Shown one piece after another: positions 1 through 41,720 of a DNA stretch of 42,042 nt. The DNA is from an uncultured Bacteroidales bacterium. GTDB lineage: Bacteria > Bacteroidota > Bacteroidia > Bacteroidales > UBA932. Within the stretch, counting starts at the first letter, position 1; each line of letters starts with the position of its first letter. The stretch covers positions 1 through 42,042 of the forward strand of contig ONOQ01000013.1 in the NCBI GenBank assembly GCA_900319485.1, given 5' to 3'. Below the pieces are notes generated by a model, which was not told the DNA's origin, made no database searches, and worked only from the letters and a program-made list of their open reading frames with translations. The position numbers and the translations under genes were made by a program.

Positions 1-567
1 GGCCTTGGGGAAAGCCTCCTGGATGAGGGTGTCCCCGAAGAACTGATACAGTTTCTCGTTATTGATGATAAGGAGGGAGTCTACGTTCTTTTCCAGCTCA
101 TGGATGCCGTCAACGGCCTTTGACTGGCTCTCGTTGCCCTCGTTCTTGAACGGGATGGTGACAACTGCCACGGTAAGGATGCCGCGGTCCTTTGCCATCT
201 TTGCGATGACAGGGGATGCGCCTGTGCCCGTGCCGCCGCCCATACCGGCGGTGATGAAGAGCATCTTTGTGCCGCAGTCCAGTACCTTAGCGGCAATCTC
301 GTCCTGGCTTTCCAGGGCGGCGTTACGGCCGGCGGTAGGGTCGGTGCCCGCACCAAGGCCGTTATTGCCCATCTGGATCTTCACCGGGACCTCGCTGGTC
401 TGGAGCGCCTGGGCGTCCGTGTTGCACACTATGAAGCTGCAGCCCTGGATGTTCTGCCTGTACATGTAGTTTACGGCATTGCAGCCACCGCCGCCCACGC
501 CGATAACCTTTATGATGGAGTTCTCCTTGCCCCAGTTGTCAGGGAAAATGTCTTTGTCGATGTTCAT
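1..567 (-). CDS. ftsZ: Cell division GTPase FtsZ (5' part; runs off the left edge)
   Basis: Tubulin-like GTPase that polymerises into the cytoplasmic Z-ring and recruits the divisome. Only the first 189 residues are in the window and the frame is open to position 1. Visible are the glycine-rich N-terminal loop (GVGGGGCNAV, about residues 23-32) and the tubulin/FtsZ signature GGGTGTG at about residues 110-116, followed by ASPVIAK. The start is fixed by ATG at 567 with a clear AGGAGG 7 nt upstream. It lies 11 bp after ftsA and closes the visible dcw operon, the usual ftsQ-ftsA-ftsZ order. The C-terminal half and the conserved FtsA/ZipA-binding tail cannot be seen. Identification is secure from the signature and context. 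Confidence 0.97.
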   Translation of the reverse strand, partial: MNIDKDIFPDNWGKENSIIKVIGVGGGGCNAVNYMYRQNIQGCSFIVCNTDAQALQTSEVPVKIQMGNNGLGAGTDPTAGRNAALESQDEIAAKVLDCGTKMLFITAGMGGGTGTGASPVIAKMAKDRGILTVAVVTIPFKNEGNESQSKAVDGIHELEKNVDSLLIINNEKLYQFFGDTLIQEAFPKA

Positions 568-574
568 AACGTAT

Positions 575-580
575 CCTCCT
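575..580 (-). promoter_or_regulatory. Shine-Dalgarno site of ftsZ
   Basis: AGGAGG on the minus strand, 7 nt before the ftsZ ATG and overlapping the ftsA stop codon. Bacteroidota genes usually lack Shine-Dalgarno sequences, and most genes in this operon do, so this site stands out. Confidence 0.7.
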
Positions 581-2012
581 ACTGTTTGTTAGCCTCGTCG
601 TAAATCTTGAGGGCGGTGTTTTCCACTGTGTTCCAGAAAATTGAAAGGAAGCCGGTCTTCTCTCCCTTGGGCTTAGGGACCTTCACTTTCTTAGTCTTCT
701 TCTCCTTGGGCTTGGGAGCCTCTTCCACGGGACCCATATCCTCCGGAGCGAATAGGGTGTCAACAGGAGTCTCGTCCGTCACTTCCACCTCAATTGTCTC
801 TTCCTCCTTGGGCTCCTCAGGCTTTTCAGGCACGCTCACGCAGTCCGGGAGTTTATCCTCCTTGGCCGCCAGCACCATTCCTATGGCCGATGTCGCCGCA
901 GTGCTGTAAACCCCGCTTCCAACCGATGCGGAGAACATATAGCGGGGATAACCCTTGCGGACGTCATACCCCGACATCTCCTTCACAAGGTTCACGAAAT
1001 TTGCCAGTTCCGCGCCGCCGCCGGTGATGACAACGCCGCTTCTAAGGGAATTCTGAAGGCCGCTCTCCTGGATGTAATAGAGCACGGCGCTCACAATCTC
1101 ACGCGCGCGGCTGTCCACAACCTCCGAGATATAGCGTACCGGAACCTCCTTGTAAGGCTCCGTGAGGCGTATCTGCAGCACCTTCTCGCTGAGTGAAGCC
1201 AGTTTCCCGGGGAGGCAGGCGCCAAAACGCTTTTTGATCTTCTCCGCTAGGTCGTCGGAGATGGAGCACTCCGTGCGGATGTCGTTGGTGATGCTCTTTC
1301 CGCCGAACGGAATGGAAGCGTAGTGCCTCATAATGCCGCCCTGGTAGATGGCAATTGAGGTTACGCCGGCGCCAACGTCCACAAGGGCCACGCCGGAGGA
1401 CATCTCCACGGGGCTCAGGACCGTGCGTGCAACCACATCCGGAAGGAAATACTTCTTGGCAATGGCAATGCCCAGTTGATTGAAGATCTTGTCCAGGGAA
1501 ACCGTTGCGCCGCGCTTCCCTATAAACACCTTGAAATTGCCTTCCAGGGCACTGCTCAAAGTACCTACAACCTCGTTTTCCACAAGTTGGATTTCGTCGT
1601 CAATGGAGAAGGACTGGGCCACGGCGCCGTACATGATCTGCTTCTCCGGATTGGGGAGGGGATAGGTCTCAAGCGCAATGGACTTGAGGGCCTGCACTTC
1701 TTCGGCCGATATATACTCTTCCGGATTGGTGCGTTCGATGCGGCCCGATGCCGTCACCTGGGTGACTTCGCTCCGGGGCATACCCACCACAACCTGAAGG
1801 ATGTGGATCATCAGTTCTTTCTCCGCCTCCGCAATCGCTTCCTTGAGGCGCTCGGAAGCCTTCATGGGGTTGGTAATCATACTGGCCCTGATACCATCCG
1901 AAGGCGTTTCCCTGTAATACACAATCTGGACGTCGTCGCCTATCACCCTGGCTACGCACAGTCCGAACTTGGAACTTCCAAGATCAATTGAGGCTATGTA
2001 TTTCTCTTCCAT
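579..2012 (-). CDS. ftsA: Cell division protein FtsA
   Basis: Actin-like ATPase that anchors FtsZ filaments to the inner face of the cytoplasmic membrane. The 477-residue product begins with the actin-fold phosphate-1 loop (IDLGSSKFG, about residues 9-17) and has later glycine-rich nucleotide-binding stretches (LVDVGAGVTS and VVITGGGAEL). Residues about 395-450 form a low-complexity linker, first acidic and then lysine-rich, before a terminal segment (FLSIFWNTVENTALKIYDEA) that looks like the amphipathic membrane-targeting helix. It is longer than the E. coli protein (about 420 aa) because of this linker. It sits between ftsQ (14 bp) and ftsZ (11 bp). Confidence 0.96.
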   Translation of the reverse strand: MEEKYIASIDLGSSKFGLCVARVIGDDVQIVYYRETPSDGIRASMITNPMKASERLKEAIAEAEKELMIHILQVVVGMPRSEVTQVTASGRIERTNPEEYISAEEVQALKSIALETYPLPNPEKQIMYGAVAQSFSIDDEIQLVENEVVGTLSSALEGNFKVFIGKRGATVSLDKIFNQLGIAIAKKYFLPDVVARTVLSPVEMSSGVALVDVGAGVTSIAIYQGGIMRHYASIPFGGKSITNDIRTECSISDDLAEKIKKRFGACLPGKLASLSEKVLQIRLTEPYKEVPVRYISEVVDSRAREIVSAVLYYIQESGLQNSLRSGVVITGGGAELANFVNLVKEMSGYDVRKGYPRYMFSASVGSGVYSTAATSAIGMVLAAKEDKLPDCVSVPEKPEEPKEEETIEVEVTDETPVDTLFAPEDMGPVEEAPKPKEKKTKKVKVPKPKGEKTGFLSIFWNTVENTALKIYDEANKQ

Positions 2013-2026
2013 ATATGGTTATTGTT

Positions 2027-2815
2027 TTATTTTCTGCAAACAAGTTGTCCGCCGTAGCGGAGATCCACCGTACCGTAATATCCGGGCTCCTTTGACGGCG
2101 CAACTGTGTCGTAATACCTTCCCATAAGGTAAAGTTTCTCTTCCACATTAACAGGCTGCCCGAAGAGGAAACGCTCCTTCCCTTCAAGCGGGAAAAGCAC
2201 CAGGTCTCCGTCGGCCGATGCCGTGATCCTTTTTATGTCCCTTTCCCACACCGTGTCCTTCATTGCGGCCACAAGATGGAGGATACGGTCCATCCACTCC
2301 TTGTGGGAGATGTCAGTAAGAGTGCCCTTATAGCCCTTTGGCACGCGGAAGGGGAGTTTCCCGTCCACTACCGGGACAGGCACGCTTCCGCGCTCCTGGA
2401 GCGGGAAGATGAAGCCTTCTGCATCGGCATAGAAGCCGCCGGCGCCGTCGTCAAAGCGCACAAGGGGCTCCCTCTGGCTTATCTCAACGTGGAGGATGCC
2501 GTCGTCCGTGAGCCAGGCCTCGCAGTGCTTGACGGCGCTGTGCCCTGTCACAATGCTCTCTATCCGCGTCAGGTCCACGCTGTCAAGGGGAAGCCCCGCA
2601 TAGGCCCTGTACTCACTGTCAAGCCACTTTTCAATGTCCTCCCGGCCCACGAAGTTCCTCTGAAGGGAATCCGTCACAATCACGTCCAGGGTGCCTTTAC
2701 CCTGGCACGTGCGCGTGCGGAGAGCGCTGCGTGACATCCGGAGCGTGAAACTCCAGAGAATCATGCAGGCCACAATCAGAAGAAGGCCTAAACCGCGTCG
2801 GACTATCGGCTTCAT
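2027..2815 (-). CDS. ftsQ: Cell division protein FtsQ
   Basis: Bitopic inner-membrane divisome protein of 262 residues. There is a short cytoplasmic N-terminus, one transmembrane helix (about residues 7-23), then a periplasmic POTRA-like region (TLDVIVTDSLQRNFVGREDI onward) and a beta-rich domain. FtsQ is poorly conserved, so the call rests on size, topology and position between murC and ftsA. The ATG overlaps the murC stop in an ATGA arrangement, suggesting translational coupling. Confidence 0.88.
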   Translation of the reverse strand: MKPIVRRGLGLLLIVACMILWSFTLRMSRSALRTRTCQGKGTLDVIVTDSLQRNFVGREDIEKWLDSEYRAYAGLPLDSVDLTRIESIVTGHSAVKHCEAWLTDDGILHVEISQREPLVRFDDGAGGFYADAEGFIFPLQERGSVPVPVVDGKLPFRVPKGYKGTLTDISHKEWMDRILHLVAAMKDTVWERDIKRITASADGDLVLFPLEGKERFLFGQPVNVEEKLYLMGRYYDTVAPSKEPGYYGTVDLRYGGQLVCRK

Positions 2816-4161
2816 AGGCGGCTTTTAAGTAATTCAGTTATAGGTTCAATGAACCTGTCAATGTTTCCGGCGCCAAAACTCACAAGAACGTCAAGGGGCT
2901 CATTGGCAAGGTAATCCATCAGTTCCTCCTTCTTAAGGAGAACCTTCTCCGGGGCGGTTACGTCCTTGAAAATGATCTCCGAAGTAACTCCGGGAATGGG
3001 CTCCTCGCGGGCGGGATAGATGTCAAGGAGGATGAGTTTATCCACCTTCGAAAGGGCGGCTGCAAACTCGGGGGCAAAGTCCCTTGTGCGGGTGTAGAGG
3101 TGCGGCTGGAAAATGGCCGTCAGTTTGCGTCCGGGGAAAATATCCCTCATAGAGGATATGGCCGATGCAAGTTCTGCCGGATGATGGGCGTAGTCGTCAA
3201 TGTAGGACAGTTTGGGGCTGTTCACGTGCACCTCCAGGCGGCGCTTAACGCCTTCAAAAGTGCCGATAGCCGCCTTCACCGCGGCAGGCTCGATCCCGTA
3301 CGAAAGGGCGATTGCGGCCGCTGCAACACTGTTTTCGGCGTTCACCCAGCCGGGGGCGCCAACGCGGACATCTTCAATAACGCCTCCGGGATAGTGGAGG
3401 TCATAATGGAAGTAACCGCACTGGTCCGGATGAGGATTTCCGGCATAGAAATCGGCCGATGAATCCGTGTAGTGGTAACTGAGGAGGCGCGCATTTGTAT
3501 CGGCCTGGACAATTGGAGTTCCCAGTTTTGCGATGAGGGTTCCGCTCACCTGCGACGCGAAAGCCTTGAAGGCCTCCACCACGTGGGCGTAATCCCCGTA
3601 GATGTCCAGGTGATCCGGATCTACTGCCGTGATCACCGCAATCTCCGGGTAGAGTTGAAGGAAGGACCGGTCAAACTCATCGGCCTCCGCTACCACGGTA
3701 TTGGTTTTGGACATCAGGAGATTTGTTCCGTAGTTACGGGAAATACCGCCAAGGAAGGCGCTGCAGCCTTCTCCACAGGCGGTGAGAATATGCGCTGTAA
3801 GGGTGCTGGTGGTGGTTTTACCGTGGGTTCCGGCAACCGCCAGGCATCTCTGGCCGCGGGCAATTTCCCCAAGGGTGCGGGAGCGCTTGAGAAGCGCATA
3901 GCCGCCCTCGCGGGCCTTCACAAGTTCCCCAAGATCGGCCGGGATTGCCGGCGTGTAAACCACCAGCGTCTCATTAATGTCGGACGGGATGAGGTCCGGA
4001 CGATCCTCGTAGTGCACTGAGATTCCTTCCGCCTCAAGCTGCCCCGTCAGTTCCGACGGCGTGCGGTCATACCCCGCCACGTTGAAGCCCTTGAACTTGT
4101 AGTACCTGGCCAGGGCACTCATCCCTATGCCACCGATTCCTATGAAATATACGTTTTTCAT
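2812..4161 (-). CDS. murC: UDP-N-acetylmuramate-L-alanine ligase MurC
   Basis: Cytoplasmic ATP-dependent ligase that adds L-alanine to UDP-N-acetylmuramic acid, the first amino acid of the peptidoglycan stem peptide. The 449-residue length fits the family. Visible are the N-terminal Rossmann-like motif (GIGGIGMSALARYY, about residues 8-21), the Mur-ligase ATP loop GTHGKTTT at residues 111-118, the central EADEFDRSF stretch, and the C-terminal DDYAHHP motif typical of MurC/Mpl. MurC rather than Mpl is favoured by its place in the dcw operon. It is separated from murG by 47 bp holding a small palindromic repeat, and overlaps ftsQ by 4 bp. Confidence 0.97.
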   Translation of the reverse strand: MKNVYFIGIGGIGMSALARYYKFKGFNVAGYDRTPSELTGQLEAEGISVHYEDRPDLIPSDINETLVVYTPAIPADLGELVKAREGGYALLKRSRTLGEIARGQRCLAVAGTHGKTTTSTLTAHILTACGEGCSAFLGGISRNYGTNLLMSKTNTVVAEADEFDRSFLQLYPEIAVITAVDPDHLDIYGDYAHVVEAFKAFASQVSGTLIAKLGTPIVQADTNARLLSYHYTDSSADFYAGNPHPDQCGYFHYDLHYPGGVIEDVRVGAPGWVNAENSVAAAAIALSYGIEPAAVKAAIGTFEGVKRRLEVHVNSPKLSYIDDYAHHPAELASAISSMRDIFPGRKLTAIFQPHLYTRTRDFAPEFAAALSKVDKLILLDIYPAREEPIPGVTSEIIFKDVTAPEKVLLKKEELMDYLANEPLDVLVSFGAGNIDRFIEPITELLKSRL

Positions 4162-4172
4162 ATTATTCTATT

Positions 4173-4205
4173 TTGAGATTTCTCGACTTCGCTCGAAATG
4201 ACAAA
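4173..4205. repeat. Degenerate GAGAT..CG..ATGACA palindromic repeat
   Basis: The murG-murC gap holds GAGATTTCTCGACTTCG followed by CTCGAAATGACA, a degenerate copy of the small imperfect palindrome also seen near 22,304, 23,479 and 33,613. It lies inside the transcribed dcw operon and forms a weak hairpin. Confidence 0.55.
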
Positions 4206-4208
4206 ACC

Positions 4209-5345
4209 TTATACTAACTTATAAATCTCATCACAAATAACCTGGGCGGCATTCCTGAGGGCCATAGCCTCTGCGTTTTTAGAAAGCGAAGCCAGTTTCA
4301 GAGGGCTGTTAAGAAGGCCGATAGCCGTGGGAAGGAGTTCGTCAATGGCCTCGGAGTCCTTCACCAGAAGGGCGGCTTCCCTACGGACAAGGGCCATTGC
4401 GTTATGCGTCTGATGGTCCTCGGCAACGTTGGGGGAAGGGACAAACACGGTGGGCTTACCCATTGCGCAGAGTTCGCTCACGGTGCTTGCGCCGCTACGG
4501 GAAATCACTACATCGGCCGCGGCGTATGCAAGGTCCATCCTCTGGATAAAGTCAAAATGCTTTATGCCCTTGATGTCAGGATGCGCTGCCATAAACTCGT
4601 CTGTGGAGGCCTTGTAGTACTTTCCGCACTGCCATATCACCTCCAAATCTTCTCCGCCGGGGCAGCCGTCCTGGATCCAGTGCATCATAGCCCTGTTGAG
4701 GGTACCGCTGCCAAGGCTTCCGCCCACTATAAAGAGGTGTTTCTTCTGCGGATCCAGCCCGTAAAACTTCATCGCTTCCTCCTTCTGCTCCGGTGTGGAG
4801 GGCTTGGAGACATCCTTACGGATAGGGTTTCCGCTCATCACTATCTTATCGGCAGGGAAAAACTTTTCCATCCCTTCATAGGCCACGCAGATGCTCTGGA
4901 CGCGGGAGCCCAGCATCTTGTTGGTAAGGCCTGCAAAGCCGTTCTGCTCCTGGATCACGGCGGGAATCTTCATCCCCGTGGCGGCCCAGAGAAGGGGAGC
5001 GCTGGCGTATCCGCCCACGCCCACAACTACATCAGGCTTGAACTCCTTCACCACCTTCTTTGCAGCCCTTAGGCTGGCAAGAAGTTTGAACGGAGCCTTG
5101 AGGTCGTTCAGGATGTTTCGGAGGTTAAGTTGCCTCTGTAGGCCCACAACAGGAAGGCCTACAATCCTGTATCCCGCTGCGGGGACCTTCTCCATCTCCA
5201 TCTTTCCATCGGCCCCTACAAAAAGAATCTCAGTGTCAGGATTCAGTTCCTTCAGTTTATCCGCGATGGAGATGGCAGGGAAGATGTGTCCTCCCGTGCC
5301 TCCGCCGCTCACAATGGCCCTTATGGCTTTGTACTCTTTGCTCAT
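4209..5345 (-). CDS. murG: Lipid II synthase MurG (N-acetylglucosaminyltransferase)
   Basis: Peripheral membrane GT28 glycosyltransferase that adds GlcNAc from UDP-GlcNAc to lipid I, giving lipid II. The diagnostic N-terminal motif GGGTGGHIFPA is at about residues 14-24, and the second glycine-rich loop GVGGYASAPLL and the C-terminal donor-site region (ISRSGASTVSEL) are present. I chose ATG at 5345 (MSKEYKAIRA) rather than the in-frame ATG at 5366, because it gives an ATGA overlap with the ftsW stop like most junctions in this operon. This gives 378 aa, normal for the family. Confidence 0.96.
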   Translation of the reverse strand: MSKEYKAIRAIVSGGGTGGHIFPAISIADKLKELNPDTEILFVGADGKMEMEKVPAAGYRIVGLPVVGLQRQLNLRNILNDLKAPFKLLASLRAAKKVVKEFKPDVVVGVGGYASAPLLWAATGMKIPAVIQEQNGFAGLTNKMLGSRVQSICVAYEGMEKFFPADKIVMSGNPIRKDVSKPSTPEQKEEAMKFYGLDPQKKHLFIVGGSLGSGTLNRAMMHWIQDGCPGGEDLEVIWQCGKYYKASTDEFMAAHPDIKGIKHFDFIQRMDLAYAAADVVISRSGASTVSELCAMGKPTVFVPSPNVAEDHQTHNAMALVRREAALLVKDSEAIDELLPTAIGLLNSPLKLASLSKNAEAMALRNAAQVICDEIYKLV

Positions 5346-6727
5346 ACGCTTGCGCTTTGCGTCCACTCGTCGTCGTCGTGGACAATTATCTGTTCGGCTT
5401 CGGCCTCGGCCTCACGCCTTGCAATATTTTCCTTTGCATCCTTGGAGATGGACAGCAGTATGCCAAAGACAATGCTGAACACCAGCAGGGAGTTGGTTCC
5501 GTGGCTCACCAGGGGGAGGGTCTGGCCGGTCTGCGGCACAAACGGCAGGTGCACGTTCACCGCCATATGCATGAAGGCCTGCCCCGTGACAAGGATGATG
5601 AGCCCCGTCACAATCATTTTGTCGTAGTATTTGTCGCACTCCTTCGCAACCAGTGTGCCCCTTGCAAGGAGGCTGAAGTACAGAAGGATGATGAGGATGG
5701 CCCCTATTATGCCGCTCTCCTCAATTATGAAACTGAACATATAGTCCCCGAAGATGACGGGAGTGGCATATTTCTGCGTGCTGTTGCCTATGCCCTTGCC
5801 AAAGACGCCGCCTTCCTTAATGGCCAGAAGGGCGCTCACGGGCTGCTTCAGTTCATCCCTGGCGTCGTTGAAATCCTTGGACCCCCGCGGGGCGTCCAGG
5901 AGTTTCTGCATAACGGCGTCGTCGTCCTGAGTGATGCGGGAGATGGCGGTTCCTATGCGGCTGTCCTTGAGGAGCCCGGCCTTCCACGCCAGGAACATGC
6001 TCCCCACGCCAACAGCGAGGGCCAGCACCATAATCCCTATGTCCTTGCCGTCAATTCCGCCCACAAGTATCATCAGGACCATAATGAGGCCGATGAAAAG
6101 GGCCGATGAATTGGACCCCATCATAACCATGAACGTGGTGAGGAGGATGGGGAGGTAGATGTAGAACAACTTCTGGTAGAAGTCCTTCTCCAGGAATCCA
6201 AGCCTCTTGGGGTATTTCCAGGCAAGCCAGGGCAGGAAGGTGAAGCCGTGGCGCTTGAAGGTGTCCAGCGCCCAGCCAAGGTACATAATCATAAACACCT
6301 TCACAAACTCATACACGTGGATCTGCTTCCCCGCAACCATAAGGATACGGCGCGCCCCGTTGATGGAACCGGCCTTCACTATCCCCAGGTTGAGGTTAAG
6401 GACCAGTATGATGAGTATCCCGAATGTTACCGCAAAGCCCAGCATGGAGAGCCTGCGGTAAATCTCCACACGGCCGAAGAAGTACAGAAGGAAGATGAAG
6501 ATAAAGCCCATTGCAACCGCCTTCAACTGGTCCAGCATGATGTCCATACGACCCGTACCCAACTCCCTTGCAAGGAGAGGGGTGGAACTGAAGACGGACA
6601 CTACGGATACCAGCATGAGGAACAGGGCAATCAGAAGGATTACCTTGTCTCCCGTGAAGCGGTCCATAAGGTTGAACAGGGAACCTATCCGGCCTTCTTC
6701 TTTCTTTTCTTCCTTAACTTCTGCCAT
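5342..6727 (-). CDS. ftsW: Peptidoglycan glycosyltransferase FtsW
   Basis: SEDS-family polytopic membrane protein that polymerises lipid II glycan strands at the septum with its partner transpeptidase FtsI. The 461-residue product has many hydrophobic segments starting at about residue 30, and the family C-terminal region with PQTGQTLPLVSHGTNSLLV, which matches the FtsW/RodA signature around the conserved TG.tLPlvShG. A long hydrophilic loop (DSRIGTAISRITQDDDA...) lies in the middle. FtsW rather than RodA is indicated by its place between murD and murG. The end is cytoplasmic and acidic (EAEAEQIIVHDDDE). Confidence 0.95.
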   Translation of the reverse strand: MAEVKEEKKEEGRIGSLFNLMDRFTGDKVILLIALFLMLVSVVSVFSSTPLLARELGTGRMDIMLDQLKAVAMGFIFIFLLYFFGRVEIYRRLSMLGFAVTFGILIILVLNLNLGIVKAGSINGARRILMVAGKQIHVYEFVKVFMIMYLGWALDTFKRHGFTFLPWLAWKYPKRLGFLEKDFYQKLFYIYLPILLTTFMVMMGSNSSALFIGLIMVLMILVGGIDGKDIGIMVLALAVGVGSMFLAWKAGLLKDSRIGTAISRITQDDDAVMQKLLDAPRGSKDFNDARDELKQPVSALLAIKEGGVFGKGIGNSTQKYATPVIFGDYMFSFIIEESGIIGAILIILLYFSLLARGTLVAKECDKYYDKMIVTGLIILVTGQAFMHMAVNVHLPFVPQTGQTLPLVSHGTNSLLVFSIVFGILLSISKDAKENIARREAEAEAEQIIVHDDDEWTQSASV

Positions 6728-6733
6728 ACTTTA

Positions 6734-8068: not shown

Positions 8069-8069
8069 A

Positions 8070-12768: not shown

Positions 12769-13106
12769 CTTTTCTTTATCACCGTTGCGGGTTCCTTGGG
12801 CATTGCGGCCTCGGAGCCCAGTTTCTTAAGTCTTGTTTCTGTGGCCGATGCGCTCTTTATCTTCACAAGCGCGGCCTCGCTTTCAGTATGATGTATCCTC
12901 AGTTCCTCGATGGCGGCCTTGTTGGCGCCGGCGCGGGTGAGGGTCTTGTCCACTTTGAGGCTCAGCATAATTGAGAGCCACATGAGGAGGAACACGTACA
13001 TCACGTGGATGTAGTATTTGTCGGCCCTTACCTTAAGGAGAAGGTCTCCGGTCCTGAGGGCCCTGTATGCGTTCCGCACGCTTAGCCAGAAGTTCTTTAC
13101 GCTCAT
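12765..13106 (-). CDS. FtsL-like divisome protein
   Basis: Small bitopic membrane protein of 113 residues: a cytoplasmic basic segment, one transmembrane helix (about 32-50), then a periplasmic helical stretch with heptad-like leucines that could form a coiled coil (KTLTRAGANKAAIEELRI...). In other bacteria the gene between rsmH and ftsI is ftsL, whose product joins FtsQ and FtsB. Sequence conservation in this family is very low, so the call rests on size, topology and operon position. A strong AGGAGGT lies 7 nt before its ATG. Confidence 0.8.
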   Translation of the reverse strand: MSVKNFWLSVRNAYRALRTGDLLLKVRADKYYIHVMYVFLLMWLSIMLSLKVDKTLTRAGANKAAIEELRIHHTESEAALVKIKSASATETRLKKLGSEAAMPKEPATVIKKR

Positions 13107-28487: not shown

Positions 28488-28488
28488 C

Positions 28489-29134: not shown

Positions 29135-29142
29135 GTTCTGCC

Positions 29143-30234: not shown

Positions 30235-30236
30235 CT

Positions 30237-31868: not shown

Positions 31869-31869
31869 T

Positions 31870-32789
<920 letters not shown>

Positions 32790-32793
<4 letters not shown>

Positions 32794-33575: not shown

Positions 33576-33612
33576 TTGAAACTTTGTTGAAAATAGTCTG
33601 GTAAACTATATA

Positions 33613-33661
33613 GATCCCCGATCAGGTCGGGGATGACAAAACCCGATTAATCGGGATGACA
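33613..33661. repeat. Two small palindromic repeats in the bamD-rpoZ gap
   Basis: GATCCCCGATCAGGTCGGGG then ATGACA (33613-33638), and CCCGATTAATCGGGATGACA (33642-33661). Both belong to the ...GGGATGACA family; the core GATCAGGTCGG also occurs inside the LysM gene. Confidence 0.75.
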
Positions 33662-33671
33662 AAAGAAGATT

Positions 33672-34019
33672 ATGGAAAAGAAGAAAGTACCTCAGAACAC
33701 CGTGACCCGCGACATCAAGAACCTTGCGGCTCCCACAGGAAACATCTATGAATCAGTAGTTATCCTCTACAAGAGGGCAAACCAGATAGCATCGGCGGAA
33801 AAGAAGGAACTGATGAAAAAACTTGAAGAGTTCCGCAACGACCGCGACACTATGGAGGAAGTCTTTGAGAACAAGGAGCAGATTGAAATCTCCAAGTACT
33901 ACGAGCGCCAGCCCAAACCGGACCTGGTAGCAATCTCAGAGTTCGAGAACGGAGACCTCTACTACCGCGAGGCCGGTGAGGAGGAAACCCACGACATCAA
34001 GCCCGTAGAAGAAGAGTAA
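33672..34019 (+). CDS. rpoZ: DNA-directed RNA polymerase subunit omega (Rpb6-like)
   Basis: 115-residue protein matching the Bacteroidota omega/Rpb6 family that helps assemble RNA polymerase. It begins with TVTRDIKNLAAPTGNIYESVVILYKRANQIA, the conserved helix that clamps the beta' subunit, and ends in an acidic tail (EEETHDIKPVEEE). It lies between bamD and recN and is 2 bp from recN. Confidence 0.88.
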   Translation: MEKKKVPQNTVTRDIKNLAAPTGNIYESVVILYKRANQIASAEKKELMKKLEEFRNDRDTMEEVFENKEQIEISKYYERQPKPDLVAISEFENGDLYYREAGEEETHDIKPVEEE

Positions 34020-34021
34020 TA

Positions 34022-35614: not shown

Positions 35615-36063
35615 TGGCAGTAAAACCCCAGAAAGGCGTCCGCAGCGTTGAAGAGTTCAAGACGCAACTTCACCGGCACGGCCTCAAGGCCACGCGCCCC
35701 AGGATTGCCGTGCACACGGTGATGATGGACCTGGTCCACGCATCGCCTGACCAGGTTGTGGAAAGGTTCCGTGAAGCCGGCGTGAAAGTTACCGTGGCTT
35801 CCGTGTACAATATCCTCTCTGAACTGTCTGACAACCACATCTATGCCCGCAGGCTTTCCGCTGCCGGGAAGATGTTCTTTGATGCCATCCCTGAGTCACA
35901 CGTCCACCTCTACGACCGTGAGAACCACACTTATAGGGATGTTGTGGACGAGGAATTATCGGCCATAGTGGAGGAGCATCTTGGCCGCCGCAAGTTCAAA
36001 GGCTACTCCATCGAGGACATAGACATCCAGTTTGTGGTCCGTCCCACTAAACGTAAAAAATAG
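35614..36063 (+). CDS. Fur-family transcriptional regulator without cysteines
   Basis: 149-residue protein with a winged helix N-terminus (HRHGLKATRPRIAVHTVMMD, then VTVASVYNILSEL, typical of Fur/PerR) and a C-terminal dimerisation domain with the HVHLYDRENHTY motif. No cysteine occurs anywhere, so it lacks the CxxC structural zinc site of many Fur and PerR proteins. The metal it senses cannot be told from sequence. It overlaps recN by one base. A gdhA promoter overlaps its 3' end. Confidence 0.88.
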   Translation: MAVKPQKGVRSVEEFKTQLHRHGLKATRPRIAVHTVMMDLVHASPDQVVERFREAGVKVTVASVYNILSELSDNHIYARRLSAAGKMFFDAIPESHVHLYDRENHTYRDVVDEELSAIVEEHLGRRKFKGYSIEDIDIQFVVRPTKRKK

Positions 36064-36094
36064 TTGGGAAAATGCTTTTTCTTGTGTAAATTTG
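36063..36094 (+). promoter_or_regulatory. Promoter of gdhA
   Basis: GTTG (36063-36066), 20-bp spacer, TAAATTTG (36087-36094): good -7 and near-consensus -33. The -33 overlaps the stop of the Fur-family gene; the leader is about 28 nt. Confidence 0.7.
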
Positions 36095-36128
36095 TAAGAC
36101 AAATTATAACACTTAATTAAAAACTGAT

Positions 36129-37472
36129 ATGAAAACAACGGACATTATGGCACGCCTTCAGGCCAAGTACCCCGGAGAGAAGGAGTATCTGCAGGCTGTT
36201 CAGGAAGTTCTGGAATCTATTGAGGATGTGTACAATCAGCATCCTGAGTTTGAGCAGGCAAAGATAGTTGAGCGTCTGGTGGAGCCGGACCGCATCTTCT
36301 CTTTCCGCGTTACTTGGATAGATGACCGCGGTGAGGTCCAGACCAACACCGGCTACAGGATCCAGTTCAACAGTGCTATCGGCCCTTACAAGGGCGGTCT
36401 CCGTTTCCATAGGGCCGTGACCCCTTCAATGCTAAAGTTCCTGGGCTTTGAACAGACCTTCAAAAACGCCCTCACAACCCTTCCTATGGGTGGCGCAAAG
36501 GGCGGCAGTGACTTTGACCCCGTGGGTAAGTCCAACGACGAGATCATGCGTTTCTGCCAGGCGTTCATGCTGGAACTTTGGAACTGTATCGGCCCGGATC
36601 AGGATATCCCTGCAGGTGATGTTGGCGTTGGCGGCCGTGAAATTGGCTACCTCTACGGAATGTACAAGAAACTGGCCCGCCAGTACAACACAGGTGTCCT
36701 TACCGGTAAGGGCGGCACCTGGGGCGGCTCCATTCTCAGGCCTGAGGCCACCGGCTTTGGCGCCCTCTATTTCACCCAGCACCTTCTCCAGAAGGCTGGC
36801 AAGGATATCAAGGGTTGCCGCGTGGCTCTCTCCGGCTTTGGTAACGTTGCCTGGGGCGCCGCAACTAAGGCCCGCGAACTTGGCGCAAAGGTTGTTGCCA
36901 TCAGTGGCCCTGACGGCGTATGCGAAATCCCCGGCGGCATTACCCCGGAAATGATTGACTATATGCTGGTTATGCGTGCCTCCAACCGCAACAAGGTGGA
37001 GGATATGGCAACTAAGTTCCCGGAACTTGCCAAGTTCACTCCTGGCAAGAAGTCCTGGAGCATCCCCGTGGACATCGCCCTCCCTTGCGCCTTCCAGAAT
37101 GAACTTTCTGAGGATGATGCAAAAGAACTGAAGGCCAACGGCTGCTGGTGCTGCTGCGAGGTCTCCAATATGGGCTGCCAGCCCGGAGCCATCCACTTCT
37201 TCCAGCACAACGGCATCCTCTTCGCCCCCGGCAAGGCCGTGAACGCAGGCGGTGTGGCCACTTCCGGCCTGGAAATGACCCAGAACGCAGAGCACATCTC
37301 CTGGAGCGGCGCAGAGGTTGATGAGAAACTCCACTTCATCATGAAGTCCATCCACGAGCAGTGCGTGAAGTACGGCACCCAGCCTGACGGCAGCGTAGAC
37401 TACGTCAAGGGCGCAAACATCGCCGGCTTCATGAAGGTTGCTACCGCCATGCTGGAGCAAGGGACGATCTAA
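36129..37472 (+). CDS. gdhA: Glutamate dehydrogenase (hexameric, probably NADP-specific)
   Basis: Interconverts glutamate and 2-oxoglutarate plus ammonia. The 447 residues match the hexameric GDH50 type. Substrate-binding PYKGGLRFH, the catalytic-lysine motif TLPMGGAKGGSDFDP and the nucleotide-binding ALSGFGNVAWGAATKARELGA are all intact. NADP use is inferred from similarity to the 447-450-aa biosynthetic enzymes rather than from a single residue. It has its own promoter and is followed by a family 2 hairpin. Confidence 0.96.
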   Translation: MKTTDIMARLQAKYPGEKEYLQAVQEVLESIEDVYNQHPEFEQAKIVERLVEPDRIFSFRVTWIDDRGEVQTNTGYRIQFNSAIGPYKGGLRFHRAVTPSMLKFLGFEQTFKNALTTLPMGGAKGGSDFDPVGKSNDEIMRFCQAFMLELWNCIGPDQDIPAGDVGVGGREIGYLYGMYKKLARQYNTGVLTGKGGTWGGSILRPEATGFGALYFTQHLLQKAGKDIKGCRVALSGFGNVAWGAATKARELGAKVVAISGPDGVCEIPGGITPEMIDYMLVMRASNRNKVEDMATKFPELAKFTPGKKSWSIPVDIALPCAFQNELSEDDAKELKANGCWCCCEVSNMGCQPGAIHFFQHNGILFAPGKAVNAGGVATSGLEMTQNAEHISWSGAEVDEKLHFIMKSIHEQCVKYGTQPDGSVDYVKGANIAGFMKVATAMLEQGTI

Positions 37473-37482
37473 TCGGCCCGCG

Positions 37483-37567
37483 CTGGCGCGTAAATAACTG
37501 ACTCTCAGCGAATTGCTTCTAGTCGGGTGCACTTCCAGGTGCACCCGACTTTGCGTAAGTGGCTGGG
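37483..37567. repeat. Family 2 palindromic repeat, copy 2 (downstream of gdhA)
   Basis: Begins with CTGGCG just after the gdhA stop; the centre is a perfect 12-bp hairpin AGTCGGGTGCAC-TTCCAG-GTGCACCCGACT (37521-37550). The right end is less well defined than in copy 1. Same orientation relative to the upstream gene as copy 1 has to upp; probably acts at the gdhA 3' end. Confidence 0.78.
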
Positions 37568-37589
37568 GGAGAGGGGGTTGCGGGGCAGT

Positions 37590-37621
37590 ATTGTTTATGC
37601 CATTGAAAATGCGTAAATTTG
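37590..37621 (+). promoter_or_regulatory. Promoter of the M49-like/DASS/porin operon
   Basis: ATTG (37590-37593), 20-bp spacer, TAAATTTG (37614-37621); leader of about 22 nt to the ATG at 37650. Closely similar to the gdhA promoter. Confidence 0.68.
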
Positions 37622-37649
37622 TAAGCTAAATAAAACATAAACCATCTTT

Positions 37650-39161
37650 ATGAGAAAGCTCATTGCAGCGCTTGCTGTTATAGCGGCGGTGGCCACGGTC
37701 TCCTCCTGCGGGGGAGGACGCACAAAGGCGGCCCGTCTGCTGGAAAACTATGCGCTGGTAACAATCCCCGCACCGGATCTTTCCGGCATCACAGATAATG
37801 GAAAGGAGGTACTGAACCTCTACAGATTTGCCGCAGATCAGGCCGATGCAATCTACTGGAAGCAGAATTTCGGCCCTAAATCCACCTTCGACGGCCTTCA
37901 GGATTCCGCAGAGAAAGAGTTCGCATACGTGAACTACGGCCCCTGGAACCGCATAGACGGAGAACCCTTCATCTACGGATACGGCAAGAAGCCCCTGGGC
38001 GCAAAGTTCTATCCGGCCGATATGACGGAGGAAGAGTTCCGCGCCCTGAAGGATCCCGCAAAGGAAAGCCCCTACACCATTATCCGCAGGAAGGAAGACC
38101 GCACCCTTGAGGTTGTGTGGTACCACGATGCCTACGCAGAGGAAGTCCGCAAGATATCAGACCTTCTGAAGGCTGCGGCCGATATTACCATCAAGGAAAG
38201 CGTCCGGGAATACCTCCTTGCAAAGGCAGAGGACGTTCTCACTGACAACTATATGGCCAGCGAGCGTGCCTGGGAGCAGATGACAGACAGCAAGATGGAC
38301 CTTGTGATCGGCCCCAATGAAGCAATTGACGACGAACTTTACGGCATCAAGGCTTCCTACGGCGCATACGTGCTCCTGAAGAACGAGGAACGCACAAACC
38401 TCATCAAGGAGGTGTGCGCATATGTTCCCGGCCTGGACCCGGAGTTTAGCTCAAAGGTGTATGCCTGCGACGTGATCTATTACGGAGGCTATCCCAACGC
38501 TGGTTACAAGAACATAGGCTGCAACGTTTCCGGCAACCGCGCCATCATTTTCGGCAATATTATCAGGGAGAAGTACAACCGCACCGTCTTCCCGGCCGGA
38601 ATGCTCCTCTTTGAAGGCGACGACCGCGCTCATCTTGACGCCAACGCCTTCTGGTGGGGCATTGTGTTCCGTGAGATTGCAAAGAACCTGGTGGAAAGAA
38701 ACCACGCCCTGGGGAACGAAGCTCTCACGTTTGAGAAAGCGGAGGCTAATGTCCTTGGAGCGCTTCTGGCTGCCCAGTTGGTGGATGAGAACCGCATCAG
38801 CGCCCTCATCACAAAGCGTGACATCCTTGCCACATTCATCGCAAACACCATCCGTTCCACGCGCTTTGGTTTTGCCGATGCAACCGGCCGCGCAAACCTC
38901 ATAGTGTATAACTACCTCACTGAGGAGGGCGCAATCACCCGCAAGGTTTCCGGAAAATACAAGATTGATTATGCCAAGACAGTTGAGGCCCTCCAGGCTC
39001 TCAGCGATGCCATTAAAGGCATCCAGGCCAGCGGAGACTATGATGCCGCCGTGGAGTTTGCAGGCACATACGCATTTGTGCCCCAGGCCATCCAGCAGGA
39101 CGTAGTGAACCTGGAACTGGAAAAAATCCCCGTAGACATACGTTTTGAATACGAAAAATAA
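37650..39161 (+). CDS. Peptidase M49 (dipeptidyl peptidase III)-like lipoprotein lacking the zinc motif
   Basis: 503-residue lipoprotein (lipobox SSC, C20). Several segments match Bacteroidota M49-like proteins: NYGPWNRIDGEPFIYGYGKKPLGAKFYP, DMTEEEF, SPYTIIRR, and VIGPNEAIDDELYGIKASY (equivalent of the family GPiEtYeDgLfGyKAaF). Where the family has the HExxxH/HExxGH zinc motif, this one reads AFWWGIVFREIAKNLV (REIAK at 341-345), so both histidines are missing. The later EEAKAD-type segment survives only as EKAEAN (362-367). It is probably a non-catalytic descendant, perhaps ligand-binding. Its operon partners are a DASS transporter and a porin. Confidence 0.7.
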   Translation: MRKLIAALAVIAAVATVSSCGGGRTKAARLLENYALVTIPAPDLSGITDNGKEVLNLYRFAADQADAIYWKQNFGPKSTFDGLQDSAEKEFAYVNYGPWNRIDGEPFIYGYGKKPLGAKFYPADMTEEEFRALKDPAKESPYTIIRRKEDRTLEVVWYHDAYAEEVRKISDLLKAAADITIKESVREYLLAKAEDVLTDNYMASERAWEQMTDSKMDLVIGPNEAIDDELYGIKASYGAYVLLKNEERTNLIKEVCAYVPGLDPEFSSKVYACDVIYYGGYPNAGYKNIGCNVSGNRAIIFGNIIREKYNRTVFPAGMLLFEGDDRAHLDANAFWWGIVFREIAKNLVERNHALGNEALTFEKAEANVLGALLAAQLVDENRISALITKRDILATFIANTIRSTRFGFADATGRANLIVYNYLTEEGAITRKVSGKYKIDYAKTVEALQALSDAIKGIQASGDYDAAVEFAGTYAFVPQAIQQDVVNLELEKIPVDIRFEYEK

Positions 39162-39170
39162 AAGATAGAA

Positions 39171-40616
39171 ATGGAAAAGAAATTCAACGCAAAAATGTGG
39201 GTGTTCCTGCCCCTGGTGCTCATCATTTTCATTTTCCTCTGGGCCGTTCCCACAAGTTTCTTCGGGATTGAGGCCCTCACCGTGGTACAGCAGAGGGTGA
39301 TTGCCCTGTTTGTGTTTGCAGCCCTTATGTGGATATTTGAGATTATCCCCAACTGGGCCACATCCCTGATGGTGATTGTGATTGCGCTGCTTACGGTGTC
39401 AAACAAGGGTATCGGCCTTTTCTGCAATCCCCAGTACGGCACCCTGGTGCCCTACGGCCGCATTATGAGTTCTATGGCCGATCCCGTGGTGATGCTGTTC
39501 CTGGGCGGCTTTGTGCTGGCAATCATGGCAGAGAAATACGGCCTTGACGTGACGCTGGCCCGCGCCCTTCTGAAACTCTTCGGCACCAAGCCCGAGATAG
39601 TTCTGCTGGGCTTCCTCATCATGATTTCCATCTTCTCCATGTTCATGAGTAATACCGCCACCGCCGCAATGATGCTGGCCCTTCTCACCCCGGTGCTTTC
39701 AAAATTACCGGCCGATGACAAGGGAAAGATAGGCCTTGCCCTGAGTATCCCCGTGGCGGCAAACCTTGGAGGTATTGGAACGCCTATCGGCACTCCTCCC
39801 AACGCTACCGCAAAGGGTGCTCTGGAGCAGGCCGGCATTGACGTTTCATTTGGCGAATGGTGCGTCCATATGATCCCTTACGTTATCATTATGATTGTGA
39901 TTGCGTGGATTGTCCTCCGCATCATGTTCCCCTTCAAGACAAAGAAACTTGTACTTGAGATACCGGAGAGTAAACAAAAGAAAGACTGGAAGTTAGTGGT
40001 GGTGTGGATTACCTTTGTGGGGACCATCCTCCTTTGGGCAACCGAGCAACTTACCCACATCAATTCCAACATTGTGGCTCTCATTCCGCTTGGCGTTTTC
40101 ACCGCAACGGGCCTCTTTGGAAAGAATGAGATCAAGGAGATCAACTGGACGGTGCTGTGGCTTGTAGCCGGCGGCTTCTGCCTTGGATACTGCCTGCAGG
40201 ATACCGGCCTTGCAAAGGTCCTTATACAGGCCATTCCGTTTGGAAGCATGAGCGTTGTGGTGGTACTTATCATCGCGGGCCTTGTGTGCTACTTCCTCAG
40301 TAACTTCATCTCAAACTCCGCTACGGCAGCCCTTCTTATCCCTATCCTTATTGTGGTTGCCAACGGTATGGCAGACCCTGAAGCCGCAAACAACGCGCAG
40401 TTCCTTGCAATGGGCGGCACCAGCGCAATGATCATCTTCATTGCGGTTTGCGCATCAATCGCAATGCTGTTCCCTATTTCCACGCCGCCTAATGCCATTG
40501 CCTCCTCCACCGGTATGGTAGAGACCAAGGATATGACCAAGGTAGGCCTTGTGATGGGCCTCGTGGGCTTTGTGCTTGGCTACTTCTGGCTTACTAAACT
40601 TTTCCCGTTTGCATAA
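39171..40616 (+). CDS. DASS (SLC13/INDY) family dicarboxylate:sodium symporter
   Basis: 481-residue polytopic inner-membrane transporter. The two conserved SNT/SNS motifs that bind the carboxylate are S160-N-T162 (FMSNTATAAMM) and S381-N-S383 (FISNSATAALL), and GIGTPIGTPPNA plus ISTPPNAIASSTG are typical re-entrant hairpin ends. Substrate is probably C4 dicarboxylate such as succinate, although sulfate or phosphate relatives exist. It lies 9 bp after the M49-like gene and 1 bp before the porin gene. Confidence 0.92.
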   Translation: MEKKFNAKMWVFLPLVLIIFIFLWAVPTSFFGIEALTVVQQRVIALFVFAALMWIFEIIPNWATSLMVIVIALLTVSNKGIGLFCNPQYGTLVPYGRIMSSMADPVVMLFLGGFVLAIMAEKYGLDVTLARALLKLFGTKPEIVLLGFLIMISIFSMFMSNTATAAMMLALLTPVLSKLPADDKGKIGLALSIPVAANLGGIGTPIGTPPNATAKGALEQAGIDVSFGEWCVHMIPYVIIMIVIAWIVLRIMFPFKTKKLVLEIPESKQKKDWKLVVVWITFVGTILLWATEQLTHINSNIVALIPLGVFTATGLFGKNEIKEINWTVLWLVAGGFCLGYCLQDTGLAKVLIQAIPFGSMSVVVVLIIAGLVCYFLSNFISNSATAALLIPILIVVANGMADPEAANNAQFLAMGGTSAMIIFIAVCASIAMLFPISTPPNAIASSTGMVETKDMTKVGLVMGLVGFVLGYFWLTKLFPFA

Positions 40617-40617
40617 T

Positions 40618-41661
40618 ATGAAAAAACTTATTCTCATAGCAGCGGCACTGATGGTAACGGTCAGTGCATTTGCTCAAGGGGAGGACAACACCCCCAAGTA
40701 CAGTTACAAACAGACCGGCTTTGCCAGCGTTCCCAAAGTGGGAGGCTACATCATTGGAGGTTACAAGTACAGTGACCTTGCAACCGCAAACGGCGGCCCC
40801 GGTTTCAACTGCAGGCTTATCCGTCTCTATGTAGACGGCAGCATCTTCAATGACTTCAAGTACCGCATCCAGTTCCAGGCCAACGGAACCAGCCCTCACG
40901 TGAAGGATTTCTTCATTGAGTGGGCTCATTGGAAAGAGTTCTCAATAAAGATGGGCCAGTTCAAACGCGCATTCACCTTCGAGAACCCTATGAACCCCTG
41001 GGACGTGGGCGTGGGAGATTTCTCACTCCTGGTACAGAAGTTCGCAGGTATGGGAGACCGTCTTGGAGAAGCCAATATGGGCGGCCGTGACGTTGGTATC
41101 CAGATTCAGGGTGACCTTTTCCCCATAGGTGAGAAGAAGTACAGACTCCTGCACTATCAGTTAGGCGTTTACAACGGCCAGGGCATCAACGTAACGGACG
41201 TTAACCGCGCAAAGGATATCATAGGTACCATCCAGTTCCAGCCCATTCCTGGCCTGTTTATTGGCGCCTTTGGCTGGACCGGTTACTGGAGAAATGCAGA
41301 AGGCACAGACCTCAAGCGTGAACGCATCAGCGCCGGCCTTAAGTACGACTACGACAACTGGACCGTACGCGCCGAATACGCAACCGCAATTGGCGGTGAG
41401 GTTCAGGAGAGCGGTGCGGCCGATGCCTTCTATGTTACCGTGGGCGTTCCCGTCCTCCCTTGGCTCAAGGTTTACGCCAAGTGGGACGAGTTCCGCGCAG
41501 CAGGCACTCCGGAGTCTGCCCACGACCTTATTTCCGCCTGCCTTAACTTCCGCCTTCACAAGAATCTAAACTTCCAGGTGGAATACAGATATCATAACAA
41601 TAAAGTCCTGACAAATCCTCAATACAATGAGGTGTGGCTTATGGGATATATCAGATTCTAA
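40618..41661 (+). CDS. Porin-like outer membrane protein (phosphate-selective porin O/P type)
   Basis: 347-residue protein with a signal peptide (MKKLILIAAALMVTVSAFAQ) and a beta-rich mature part of alternating aromatic strands ending in NEVWLMGYIRF with terminal Phe, as in outer-membrane barrels. Segments such as KYRIQFQANGTSPHVKDFFIEW and KMGQFKRAFTFENPMNPWD resemble OprO/OprP-family porins. In context it may admit the substrate of the DASS transporter. ATG 40618 is chosen because it gives the signal peptide; an upstream in-frame start lies inside the DASS gene. Confidence 0.85.
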   Translation: MKKLILIAAALMVTVSAFAQGEDNTPKYSYKQTGFASVPKVGGYIIGGYKYSDLATANGGPGFNCRLIRLYVDGSIFNDFKYRIQFQANGTSPHVKDFFIEWAHWKEFSIKMGQFKRAFTFENPMNPWDVGVGDFSLLVQKFAGMGDRLGEANMGGRDVGIQIQGDLFPIGEKKYRLLHYQLGVYNGQGINVTDVNRAKDIIGTIQFQPIPGLFIGAFGWTGYWRNAEGTDLKRERISAGLKYDYDNWTVRAEYATAIGGEVQESGAADAFYVTVGVPVLPWLKVYAKWDEFRAAGTPESAHDLISACLNFRLHKNLNFQVEYRYHNNKVLTNPQYNEVWLMGYIRF

Positions 41662-41720
41662 AACGGGGCTTCGGATTTAGTTTTTGAAACATCCGGTTGC
41701 AAATCTTTTAATTTTACAAT

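What the first reader, a model, noticed from the sequence alone, without database searches (positions are those of the whole stretch)
1..41690. Extremely over-represented heptamer ATCGGCC / GGCCGAT across the whole window
By hand I count about 90 occurrences on both strands (for example 885-891, and runs in nearly every gene), roughly one per 460 bp. At about 57% GC, chance gives about 7 for both strands together. The 10-bp palindrome that joins both forms, ATCGGCCGAT, occurs at 3451, 11125 and 35488. The last C is important: ATCGGC without it is much rarer. The motif appears in several reading frames (TCG-GCC, GCC-GAT, ATC-GGC) and in genes of both orientations, so simple codon choice does not explain it. 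It is absent from the AT-rich end. Candidates are a HIP1-like iterated motif, a DNA-uptake word, a Chi-like or replication/segregation signal, or a methylase target. I know of no description in Bacteroidota.
Basis: partly seen in the sequence, partly recalled or inferred. Interest (0 to 1): 0.85.

Follow-up and report, generated by a model that had tools for sequence, protein, structure and literature searches.

The report
Genome-wide iterated word in rumen bacteria
A seven-letter DNA word is scattered thousands of times through the genomes of one group of uncultured, probably rumen-dwelling bacteria, much like the 'self' tags by which some other bacteria recognise their own DNA when they take it up; whether it does that job here has not been tested.

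Summary
ATCGGCC/GGCCGAT occurs 94 times in the window against 7.3 in shuffles, and 3,797 times in the 2.5-Mb genome against 298 for the reversed word. Synonymous-codon shuffles explain 89 of 598 coding copies; no other 7-mer has as large an excess. There is no strand or gene-orientation bias.

The genome belongs to Cryptobacteroides-like Bacteroidales. The excess marks one clade, 25 of 119 loci (5.4-fold pooled; 1.1-fold outside), with 'dialects' of one pattern, KGCCGAW. In the closest relatives (92% identity) 49 of 52 sites are kept, against 64% of controls; farther away sites turn over but enrichment persists.

A common methylase, Chi/KOPS polarity and type IV pili are not supported. I favour a DNA-uptake word read by a pilus-free uptake apparatus. 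A conserved, partly hypervariable operon (OB-fold protein, two nuclease-family proteins, outer-membrane protein, DUF5689 protein) resembles Riemerella transformation genes. That assignment is inferred, with conflicting allele data; no function has been tested.

The parts
885..41424 (.). 94 copies of the heptamer ATCGGCC (51 on the + strand; 43 on the - strand, read as GGCCGAT on +), mostly inside genes of both orientations; first copy 885-891, last 41418-41424
   Evidence: one search lists every copy; dinucleotide-shuffle mean 7.3
3451..3460 (.). palindromic pair ATCGGCCGAT (two overlapping copies), in a Mur-ligase gene (probably murC)
   Evidence: gene by Pfam
11125..11134 (.). palindromic pair ATCGGCCGAT, in a penicillin-binding-protein gene (ftsI-like)
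35488..35497 (.). palindromic pair ATCGGCCGAT, in a recN-like (SMC_N) gene
10855..12768 (-). ftsI-like gene, among the richest: 8 copies against 1.1 from codon shuffles
34022..35614 (+). recN-like gene, 7 copies against 0.2 from codon shuffles
579..14005 (-). division and cell-wall cluster (ftsA to mraW) used for the tree, site conservation and dialect comparison

Best explanation
The heptamer is the strongest form of a short, non-palindromic recognition word of double-stranded DNA, KGCCGAW. One clade of Cryptobacteroides accumulates it (about 1.5 copies per kb here), as Neisseria and Haemophilus accumulate their uptake words. I think it works as a DNA-uptake ('self') word. A surface apparatus without type IV pili preferentially captures DNA that carries the word, and recombination of captured kin DNA then spreads and repairs copies, so that density rather than position is kept. 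The best candidate apparatus is an operon outside the window (G000 contig C78: OB-fold/BACON protein, Endonuclease_NS protein, Exo_endo_phos_3 protein, large protein with a CarboxypepD_reg domain taken to be the outer-membrane partner, DUF5689 protein), together with ComEC. Shown: enrichment, codon-independence, symmetry, dialects, conservation, clade restriction, operon conservation. Inferred: that the word is read during uptake, and that the DUF5689 protein (or the equally variable OB-fold or nuclease partner) reads it.
For: Excess survives codon-preserving shuffles in all six frames. TCG is 7.9% of Ser codons, yet 230 of the 324 Ser codons that follow an A and precede Ala use it. Intergenic copies 24 against 3.0. 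No strand or gene-orientation bias. Dialects share KGCCGAW; G428 has 3,128 GGCCGAA copies and shows GGCCGAA at 11 of 51 aligned window sites. Sites kept 49/52 and 23/25 in the two closest relatives against 64% for controls; wobble codons 131/137 against 75% expected. ComEC core in 53 of 54 genomes. The operon has the two neighbouring domains described for RA0C_RS04915/04920, reported as essential for Riemerella transformation. Over 27 genomes DUF5689 length tracks enrichment, Spearman 0.84, kinship not removed.
Against: No uptake or binding has been measured. T2SSF, the type IV pilus platform, is over cut-off in none of 27 high-count genomes (two sub-threshold hits, G028 and G338), so the mechanism is unlikely to be that of Neisseria. 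The operon also occurs in genomes without the word, so its presence is not the switch. DUF5689 passes cut-off in only 20 of 27 high-count genomes against 24 of 26 low-count ones; five (G019, G146, G178, G387, G371) show no hit. Dialect does not follow the DUF5689 allele simply: G000 and G424 share GGCCGAT but their DUF5689 proteins are 45% identical, while G000 and G428 are 79% identical and differ in dialect. The Riemerella link rests on domain names and gene order, not on a sequence comparison. In L065 window sites are kept less often (13/51) than controls (34%). Inverted pairs between genes, typical of known uptake words, are rare (2 within 40 bp). A core-against-accessory contrast was not established.
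Confidence: 0.45

Rival explanations
1. HIP1-like word: the motif is the target of an orphan DNA methylase and is created and kept by methylation-coupled mismatch repair or another methylation-dependent process.
For: HIP and alternate HIP words co-occur with methylases, and HIP1 density is about one per kb (PMC4390886; abstract and part 1 of section 3.4). Some high-count genomes carry strong Eco57I-type genes, e.g. G428, G005, G425, G424, G379, G317, G019.
Against: The word is not palindromic. C5 methylase in 8 of 27 high-count genomes, N6_N4_Mtase over cut-off in 5, N6_Mtase in 8; G146, G172, G242, G338, G387 and G081 have none of the four families over cut-off, and G420 only a marginal Eco57I hit. 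Gradual drift at the edges of one pattern is not what swaps of restriction systems would give (inference).
Confidence: 0.15
2. Target of a chromosome-wide DNA-binding protein (nucleoid organiser, repair or replication factor) that reads double-stranded DNA without polarity.
For: Symmetry, nearly random spacing, enrichment kept while positions turn over. Rich genes include surface and biosynthetic genes as well as housekeeping ones.
Against: I know of no such protein that needs about 1.5 copies per kb of a 7-mer (recalled); edge specificity differs among related species.
Confidence: 0.2
3. Chi-like recombination hotspot read by AddAB/RecBCD, or a KOPS-like segregation signal.
For: Chi words are over-represented 5-8-mers of core genomes (recalled). 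An AddA-like gene (UvrD helicase plus PDDEXK nuclease domains) lies near ftsK and comEC in this genome.
Against: None of nine contig samples has an orientation bias (p 0.17 or more); density several times that of known Chi words (recalled); specificity differs between related species.
Confidence: 0.08
4. A mutational or repair bias that writes the word without any function.
For: Some near-miss words are depleted in G000, as if converted: changes at word position 2 stand at 0.35-0.58 of expectation and C to T or G at position 3 at 0.22 and 0.58; changes at position 5 are not depleted.
Against: A bias that only creates sites does not explain 94% retention against 64% of controls or 131/137 wobble codons kept.
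Confidence: 0.1
5. Codon or codon-context preference, or base composition.
For: Part of the raw count in GC-rich members of the genus (G003, G088, G093) is composition: O/E 1.1 to 2.1 there. In two genomes of other families the TGCCGA excess is mainly on the coding strand.
Against: Here 598 against 89 after codon shuffles, coding and non-coding strands of genes equally enriched (6.2- to 7.7-fold), intergenic copies enriched.
Confidence: 0.02

Closest known systems
DNA uptake sequence (DUS) of Neisseriaceae, with dialects
   Same: Short word, thousands of copies, species dialects around a fixed core that follow the phylogeny (PMC3630211, abstract only).
   Different: 7-bp word instead of 10-12 bp (recalled); no type IV pilus platform found; inverted pairs between genes rare; no uptake experiment.
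Uptake signal sequence (USS) of Pasteurellaceae
   Same: Same kind of genome-wide word; about 1,300 copies in H. influenzae (passage of PMC5217627).
   Different: Unrelated sequence and apparatus; here the candidate apparatus is pilus-free.
HIP1 and alternate HIPs of cyanobacteria
   Same: High density, lineage-restricted, replaced by variants in some relatives (PMC4390886, abstract).
   Different: HIPs are palindromes paired with methylases; this word is asymmetric and no common methylase was found among four families.
Pilus-free natural transformation of Bacteroidota (Riemerella, Porphyromonas)
   Same: ComEC; a CarboxypepD_reg outer-membrane protein next to a DUF5689 protein, both reported as essential in R. 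anatipestifer (PMC8459023, passages and one section). P. gingivalis needs ComEA and ComEC, with no T2SS or T4SS identified (PMC11532111, passages and one section). R. columbina prefers its own DNA (PMC7965970, passages and one section).
   Different: No uptake word is established in those species; the k-mers tabulated for Riemerella are A/T-rich runs. Here the operon also carries nuclease-family and OB-fold genes, and part of it is hypervariable.

Membership tests
DNA uptake sequence (DUS/USS) | Short word in hundreds to thousands of copies, far above composition and codon expectation | tested here: met
DNA uptake sequence (DUS/USS) | Both orientations equally used | tested here: met
   351 against 356 in genes; 1,883 and 1,914 genome-wide
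DNA uptake sequence (DUS/USS) | Dialects sharing a core, following phylogeny | tested here: met
   three dialects within one clade, shown on three genomes in depth
DNA uptake sequence (DUS/USS) | Type IV pilus apparatus (receptor ComP, a minor pilin, in Neisseria) | tested here: not met
   T2SSF over cut-off in 0 of 27 high-count genomes
DNA uptake sequence (DUS/USS) | Inverted pairs used as terminators between genes | tested here: inconclusive
   2 intergenic inverted pairs within 40 bp among 24 intergenic copies
DNA uptake sequence (DUS/USS) | The word raises DNA uptake or transformation | not testable with these tools
   needs cultured strains
HIP1-type iterated palindrome | Palindromic word | tested here: not met
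   the 7-mer is asymmetric; the 10-bp palindrome has 74 sites of 3,797 copies
HIP1-type iterated palindrome | Cognate methylase present | tested here: not met
   no family common to the high-count genomes; 6 of 27 lack all four over cut-off; D12 not searched
Chi / KOPS | Orientation bias along the replichore | tested here: not met
   nine contig samples, p 0.17 or more; closed genome not available
Bacteroidota pilus-free uptake operon (RS04915/RS04920 type) | Adjacent CarboxypepD_reg protein and DUF5689 protein | tested here: met
   Pfam in G000, G428 and G121; homologous neighbours in 31 of the 32 loci scanned, G428 being seen only
Bacteroidota pilus-free uptake operon (RS04915/RS04920 type) | Sequence homology to the Riemerella proteins and requirement for transformation | not tested
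   Riemerella sequences not held; no experiment

The most novel reading that the evidence does not exclude
The word is the first DNA-uptake 'self' tag in Bacteroidota, and it is read not by a pilin but by a hypervariable surface protein (DUF5689 and partners) on a nuclease-bearing outer-membrane uptake complex. Its specificity drifts at the edges and so makes mating barriers between sister rumen species.
Probability: 0.3. Interest if true: 0.93.

Novelty: new variant of a known kind. Interest (0 to 1): 0.8.

Why it matters
Uptake words are described for Neisseriaceae and Pasteurellaceae (abstracts in the listings), whose uptake uses pili (recalled). An independent case in a species-rich genus of another phylum, with dialects among many sequenced genomes and a candidate pilus-free apparatus, would allow a direct test of how such words arise, spread and change. 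It would also point to the unknown outer-membrane step of natural transformation in Bacteroidota. Even if the uptake reading fails, a conserved, lineage-specific 7-bp word with no known reader is a clean open problem.

Tried and rejected
Rejected: codon usage as the main cause, polarity signals, a common methylase of four families, a type IV pilus uptake system. Spacing as a clue: gaps look random, 5-kb dispersion index 1.61.

Led nowhere: apparent rival words in a 20-kb sample of G124 did not dominate in 120 kb. GGCAATG in G030 is 3.3-fold and was not explained. The excess of ATCGGCC over its reversed control in G053 and G056 (other families) is weak after codon shuffles (26/10.6 and 41/21.1); the related TGCCGA excess is mainly on the coding strand (sense 2.6- to 3.2-fold, antisense 1.3- to 1.8-fold), although in reverse genes of G056 the raw counts are even (21 sense, 23 antisense). 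Raw counts above 1,000 in GC-rich members such as G088 and G093 are mostly composition. A core-against-accessory contrast was looked for and not established: of 10 rich genes scanned (two in part) three are housekeeping (dnaE, IMPDH, dsbD) but others are TonB-receptor-like (3), NRPS-like, a glycosidase, PD40 or unknown; 10 empty long genes (one in part) are SusD, DUF4874, CotH, TIG or unknown. PDB sequence searches of the DUF5689 and outer-membrane proteins gave nothing useful. Literature: searches showed no description of this word, of an established uptake word in Bacteroidota, or of Cryptobacteroides competence; only open-licence papers are held, listings were mostly seen by title and start of abstract, and of 2,012 papers with the 7-mer as text 20 were listed.

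Full report
OBSERVATION. The heptamer ATCGGCC (GGCCGAT on the other strand) occurs 94 times in the 42-kb window; 100 dinucleotide shuffles give a mean of 7.3 and at most 14. It has the largest excess of any 7-mer of the window, and its one-letter neighbours stand at 0-12 copies, except ATCGGCA at 21. In the whole genome (G000, 2,506,427 bases, 91 contigs, 93.5% complete) it occurs 1,883 + 1,914 times, against 139 + 159 for the word read backwards. The palindrome ATCGGCCGAT has 74 sites, its reversed control 1.

CODON TEST. On 442 kb of the genome (window plus 20 stretches; 352 genes by a simple longest-ORF caller) 598 coding copies face 89.5 (sd 8.8, maximum 110 of 100) when synonymous codons are shuffled within genes, and 88.8 (maximum 118) when codon-junction dinucleotides are kept as well. 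Counts differ by frame, but all six frames are in excess. The word ranks first of all 7-mers with z 53.7; the next few overlap it, and the best that does not, TCCCGGA, has z 13.6. Rare codons are drafted in: TCG is 7.9% of Ser codons, but 230 of the 324 Ser codons that follow an A and precede Ala are TCG; 199 of 769 TCG codons lie in A-TCG-GCC. Between genes 24 copies stand against 3.0 from a first-order model.

SYMMETRY AND SPACING. In 502 kb, GGCCGAT lies 351 times on the coding strand and 356 times on the other; the ratio to the codon expectation is 6.2 to 7.7 in each of the four gene-strand classes, and none of nine contig samples is biased (p 0.17 or more). As a contrast, the TGCCGA excess in two genomes of other families is mainly on the coding strand (sense 3.0 and 2.9 in G056, 3.2 and 2.6 in G053; antisense 1.3 to 1.8), as codon context would give. 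Gaps between copies are close to random (median 427.5 against 467 expected) and 5-kb bins are mildly over-dispersed (index 1.61). Density rises with gene GC, but the ratio to the codon expectation is 5.0 to 7.6 in all GC fifths. The richest genes include housekeeping ones (dnaE, IMPDH, dsbD, ftsI-like, recN-like) but also TonB-receptor-like, NRPS-like and glycosidase genes; long genes without a copy include SusD, DUF4874 and unknown ones (10 rich and 10 empty genes scanned, some in part). I therefore claim no core-against-accessory contrast.

HOST AND DISTRIBUTION. MurE of the window finds relatives named Bacteroidales or Candidatus Cryptobacteroides; the nearest whose source is in the title are from ruminant forestomachs (80 best loci of 116). 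Among 400 genomes drawn from the genus, about 74 have 1,000 or more raw copies and about 41 have 2,000 or more (counted by hand), but part of this is GC content. Of 121 loci examined over the division cluster, 119 had enough genes; 25 of them form one clade (support 1.0) in which every locus is enriched 3.4-fold or more after codon correction (pooled 601 against 112). The other 94 pool to 315 against 280, the best being G097 (3.3) and G100 (3.2). By equal contig lengths, three of the 25 rows repeat a genome reached through two tools, as do several outside the clade.

DIALECTS. G428 (UBA4230; 85% MurE identity) has 3,128 TTCGGCC against 582 for its reversed control; the 17 other genomes searched have 243 to 1,460. 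On about 120 kb each, codon-corrected: G428 GGCCGAA 196/36 and GGCCGAT 88/21; G431 TGCCGAT 141/34 and GGCCGAT 74/20. Position by position, G000, G428 and G431 share GCCGA: no other letter at word positions 2-6 exceeds 1.7-fold. The first position takes G or T, the seventh T (G000, G431) or A and T (G428), and C is disfavoured at the eighth.

CONSERVATION AND TURNOVER. Aligned over the division cluster, window copies are kept in 49 of 52 cases in L061 (91.7% nucleotide identity) and 23 of 25 in L062; words of the same composition are kept in 64% in both. In L063 it is 14 of 23 (controls 50%), in L064 8 of 15 (39%), and in L065, the GGCCGAA genome, 13 of 51 (34%), with 11 more reading TTCGGCC. 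Wobble bases inside the word are kept in 131 of 137 and 64 of 66 codons of L061 and L062, against 75% and 73% expected from the same codons elsewhere; in L065 there is no difference (72 of 122, 59%). At about 75% nucleotide identity 6-32% of sites are shared, against 14-23% of controls, although those genomes remain enriched. So over longer times density, not position, is what is kept.

MECHANISM TESTS. Twenty-seven distinct high-count genomes and 26 low-count ones were searched (54-55 handles; G247 and G289 give the same hit places as G424 and G425 and are counted once). C5 methylase: 8 of 27 high, 12 of 26 low. N6_N4_Mtase over cut-off: 5 of 27 high, 11 of 26 low. N6_Mtase: 8 of 27 high, 13 of 26 low. 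Eco57I gives weak hits of about 300 residues in most genomes and strong hits in some. G146, G172, G242, G338, G387 and G081 have none of the four over cut-off, and G420 only a marginal one. T2SSF, the pilus and type II platform, is over cut-off in 0 of 27 high and 6 of 26 low. The ComEC core is present in 53 of 54. Three of the 27 (G173, G256, G418) were chosen by raw count; G256, the only one of them checked after codon correction, is not enriched (5/5.0).

CANDIDATE APPARATUS. A transposon screen in R. anatipestifer reports ComEC, DprA, ComF, RecA and four proteins without classical competence homologues as essential for transformation. Two of these are a predicted outer-membrane protein with a carboxypeptidase regulatory-like domain and its operon neighbour with DUF5689, proposed as DNA importer and DNA binder (PMC8459023; passages and the section on sequence analysis). 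It is the only paper in the library that names DUF5689. P. gingivalis needs ComEA and ComEC, and no T2SS or T4SS has been identified in it (PMC11532111, passages and one section). In our genus DUF5689 is over cut-off in 46 of 55 genomes: 20 of 27 high, G097 and G100, 24 of 26 low. In G000 it closes an operon on contig C78: OB-fold/BACON protein (805 aa), DNA/RNA non-specific endonuclease (397), Exo_endo_phos_3 (365), CarboxypepD_reg protein (989), DUF5689 protein (530) with an N-terminal signal-like stretch and an invariant cysteine. Of 22 genomes with longer context, all have the DUF5689 gene next to the CarboxypepD_reg gene, 21 have the two nuclease-family genes beside them (the contig of G333 ends), and 17 an OB-fold gene beyond.

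WHAT FITS AND WHAT DOES NOT. Between G000 and its close relative G424 (98% identity in division proteins) the Exo_endo_phos_3 and CarboxypepD_reg proteins are 93% and 87% identical, but DUF5689 45%, nuclease 49% and OB-fold 26%; with G428 these three are 79, 77 and 72%. The DUF5689 tree joins G000 to G428, the CarboxypepD_reg tree joins G000 to G424 (G428 not in that tree), so alleles appear to have been exchanged. Hypervariable surface parts would fit a specificity module. DUF5689 length correlates with enrichment over the 27 genomes that could be measured, of 32 with the protein (Spearman 0.84), but kinship is not removed. Genomes at 2.9-fold or more have 370-530 aa and those at 1.0 or less 346-364 aa; G096 and G114 (344-345 aa) show 2.2-2.3 on one 20-kb locus each, and G165 (381 aa) 2.2. 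Dialect does not follow allele simply: G000 keeps GGCCGAT with an allele like that of G428. A change inside the allele family, or a recent swap with lagging genome sequence, would explain this; neither is shown. Five high-count genomes have no recognisable DUF5689.

VERDICT. The motif is real, codon-independent, conserved, lineage-specific and has dialects. By anatomy it works like a DNA-uptake word; it is not filed as a member of the Neisseria or Haemophilus type, because the pilus platform was not found. The pilus-free uptake reading is my best explanation (0.45), with the DUF5689 operon as reader less certain than that (about 0.3).

Noticed in passing
L245:10241-19504 (own genome contig C78): Operon with conserved Exo_endo_phos_3 and CarboxypepD_reg proteins but hypervariable OB-fold, nuclease and DUF5689 proteins that seem to have been exchanged between related species.
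   Followed up: partly
L048, L155-L160 (genome G030): A different word, GGCAATG/GGCAAT, is 3.3 and 2.4 times over-represented after codon shuffles; also seen in sister locus L109.
   Followed up: partly
L033, L190-L194 (G097) and L035, L195-L198 (G100): Two genomes outside the main clade show moderate enrichment of GGCCGAT (3.4-fold each) and GCCGATG (3.5- and 2.4-fold): independent gain or remnant.
   Followed up: partly
own genome, 442 kb sampled: Strong avoidance of palindromes CTAG (0.06 of expectation from base composition), AGCT (0.25), TCGA (0.33), CATG (0.44) and GATC (0.57).
   Followed up: no
L203:3419-16083 (own genome contig C68): Short ComEC-core gene (362 aa) next to acetate kinase and phosphotransacetylase genes, near ftsK and an AddA-like helicase-nuclease gene, with an IS110-type transposase.
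   Followed up: partly
L219-L224 (G056, another family): GCCGAT lies mostly on one strand (122 to 40 over six stretches), where most genes also point one way; codon-corrected excess of TGCCGA is on the coding strand, but few reverse genes were available to exclude a replication-strand bias.
   Followed up: partly
window 22407-22481: tRNA-His gene (anticodon gtg).
   Followed up: no
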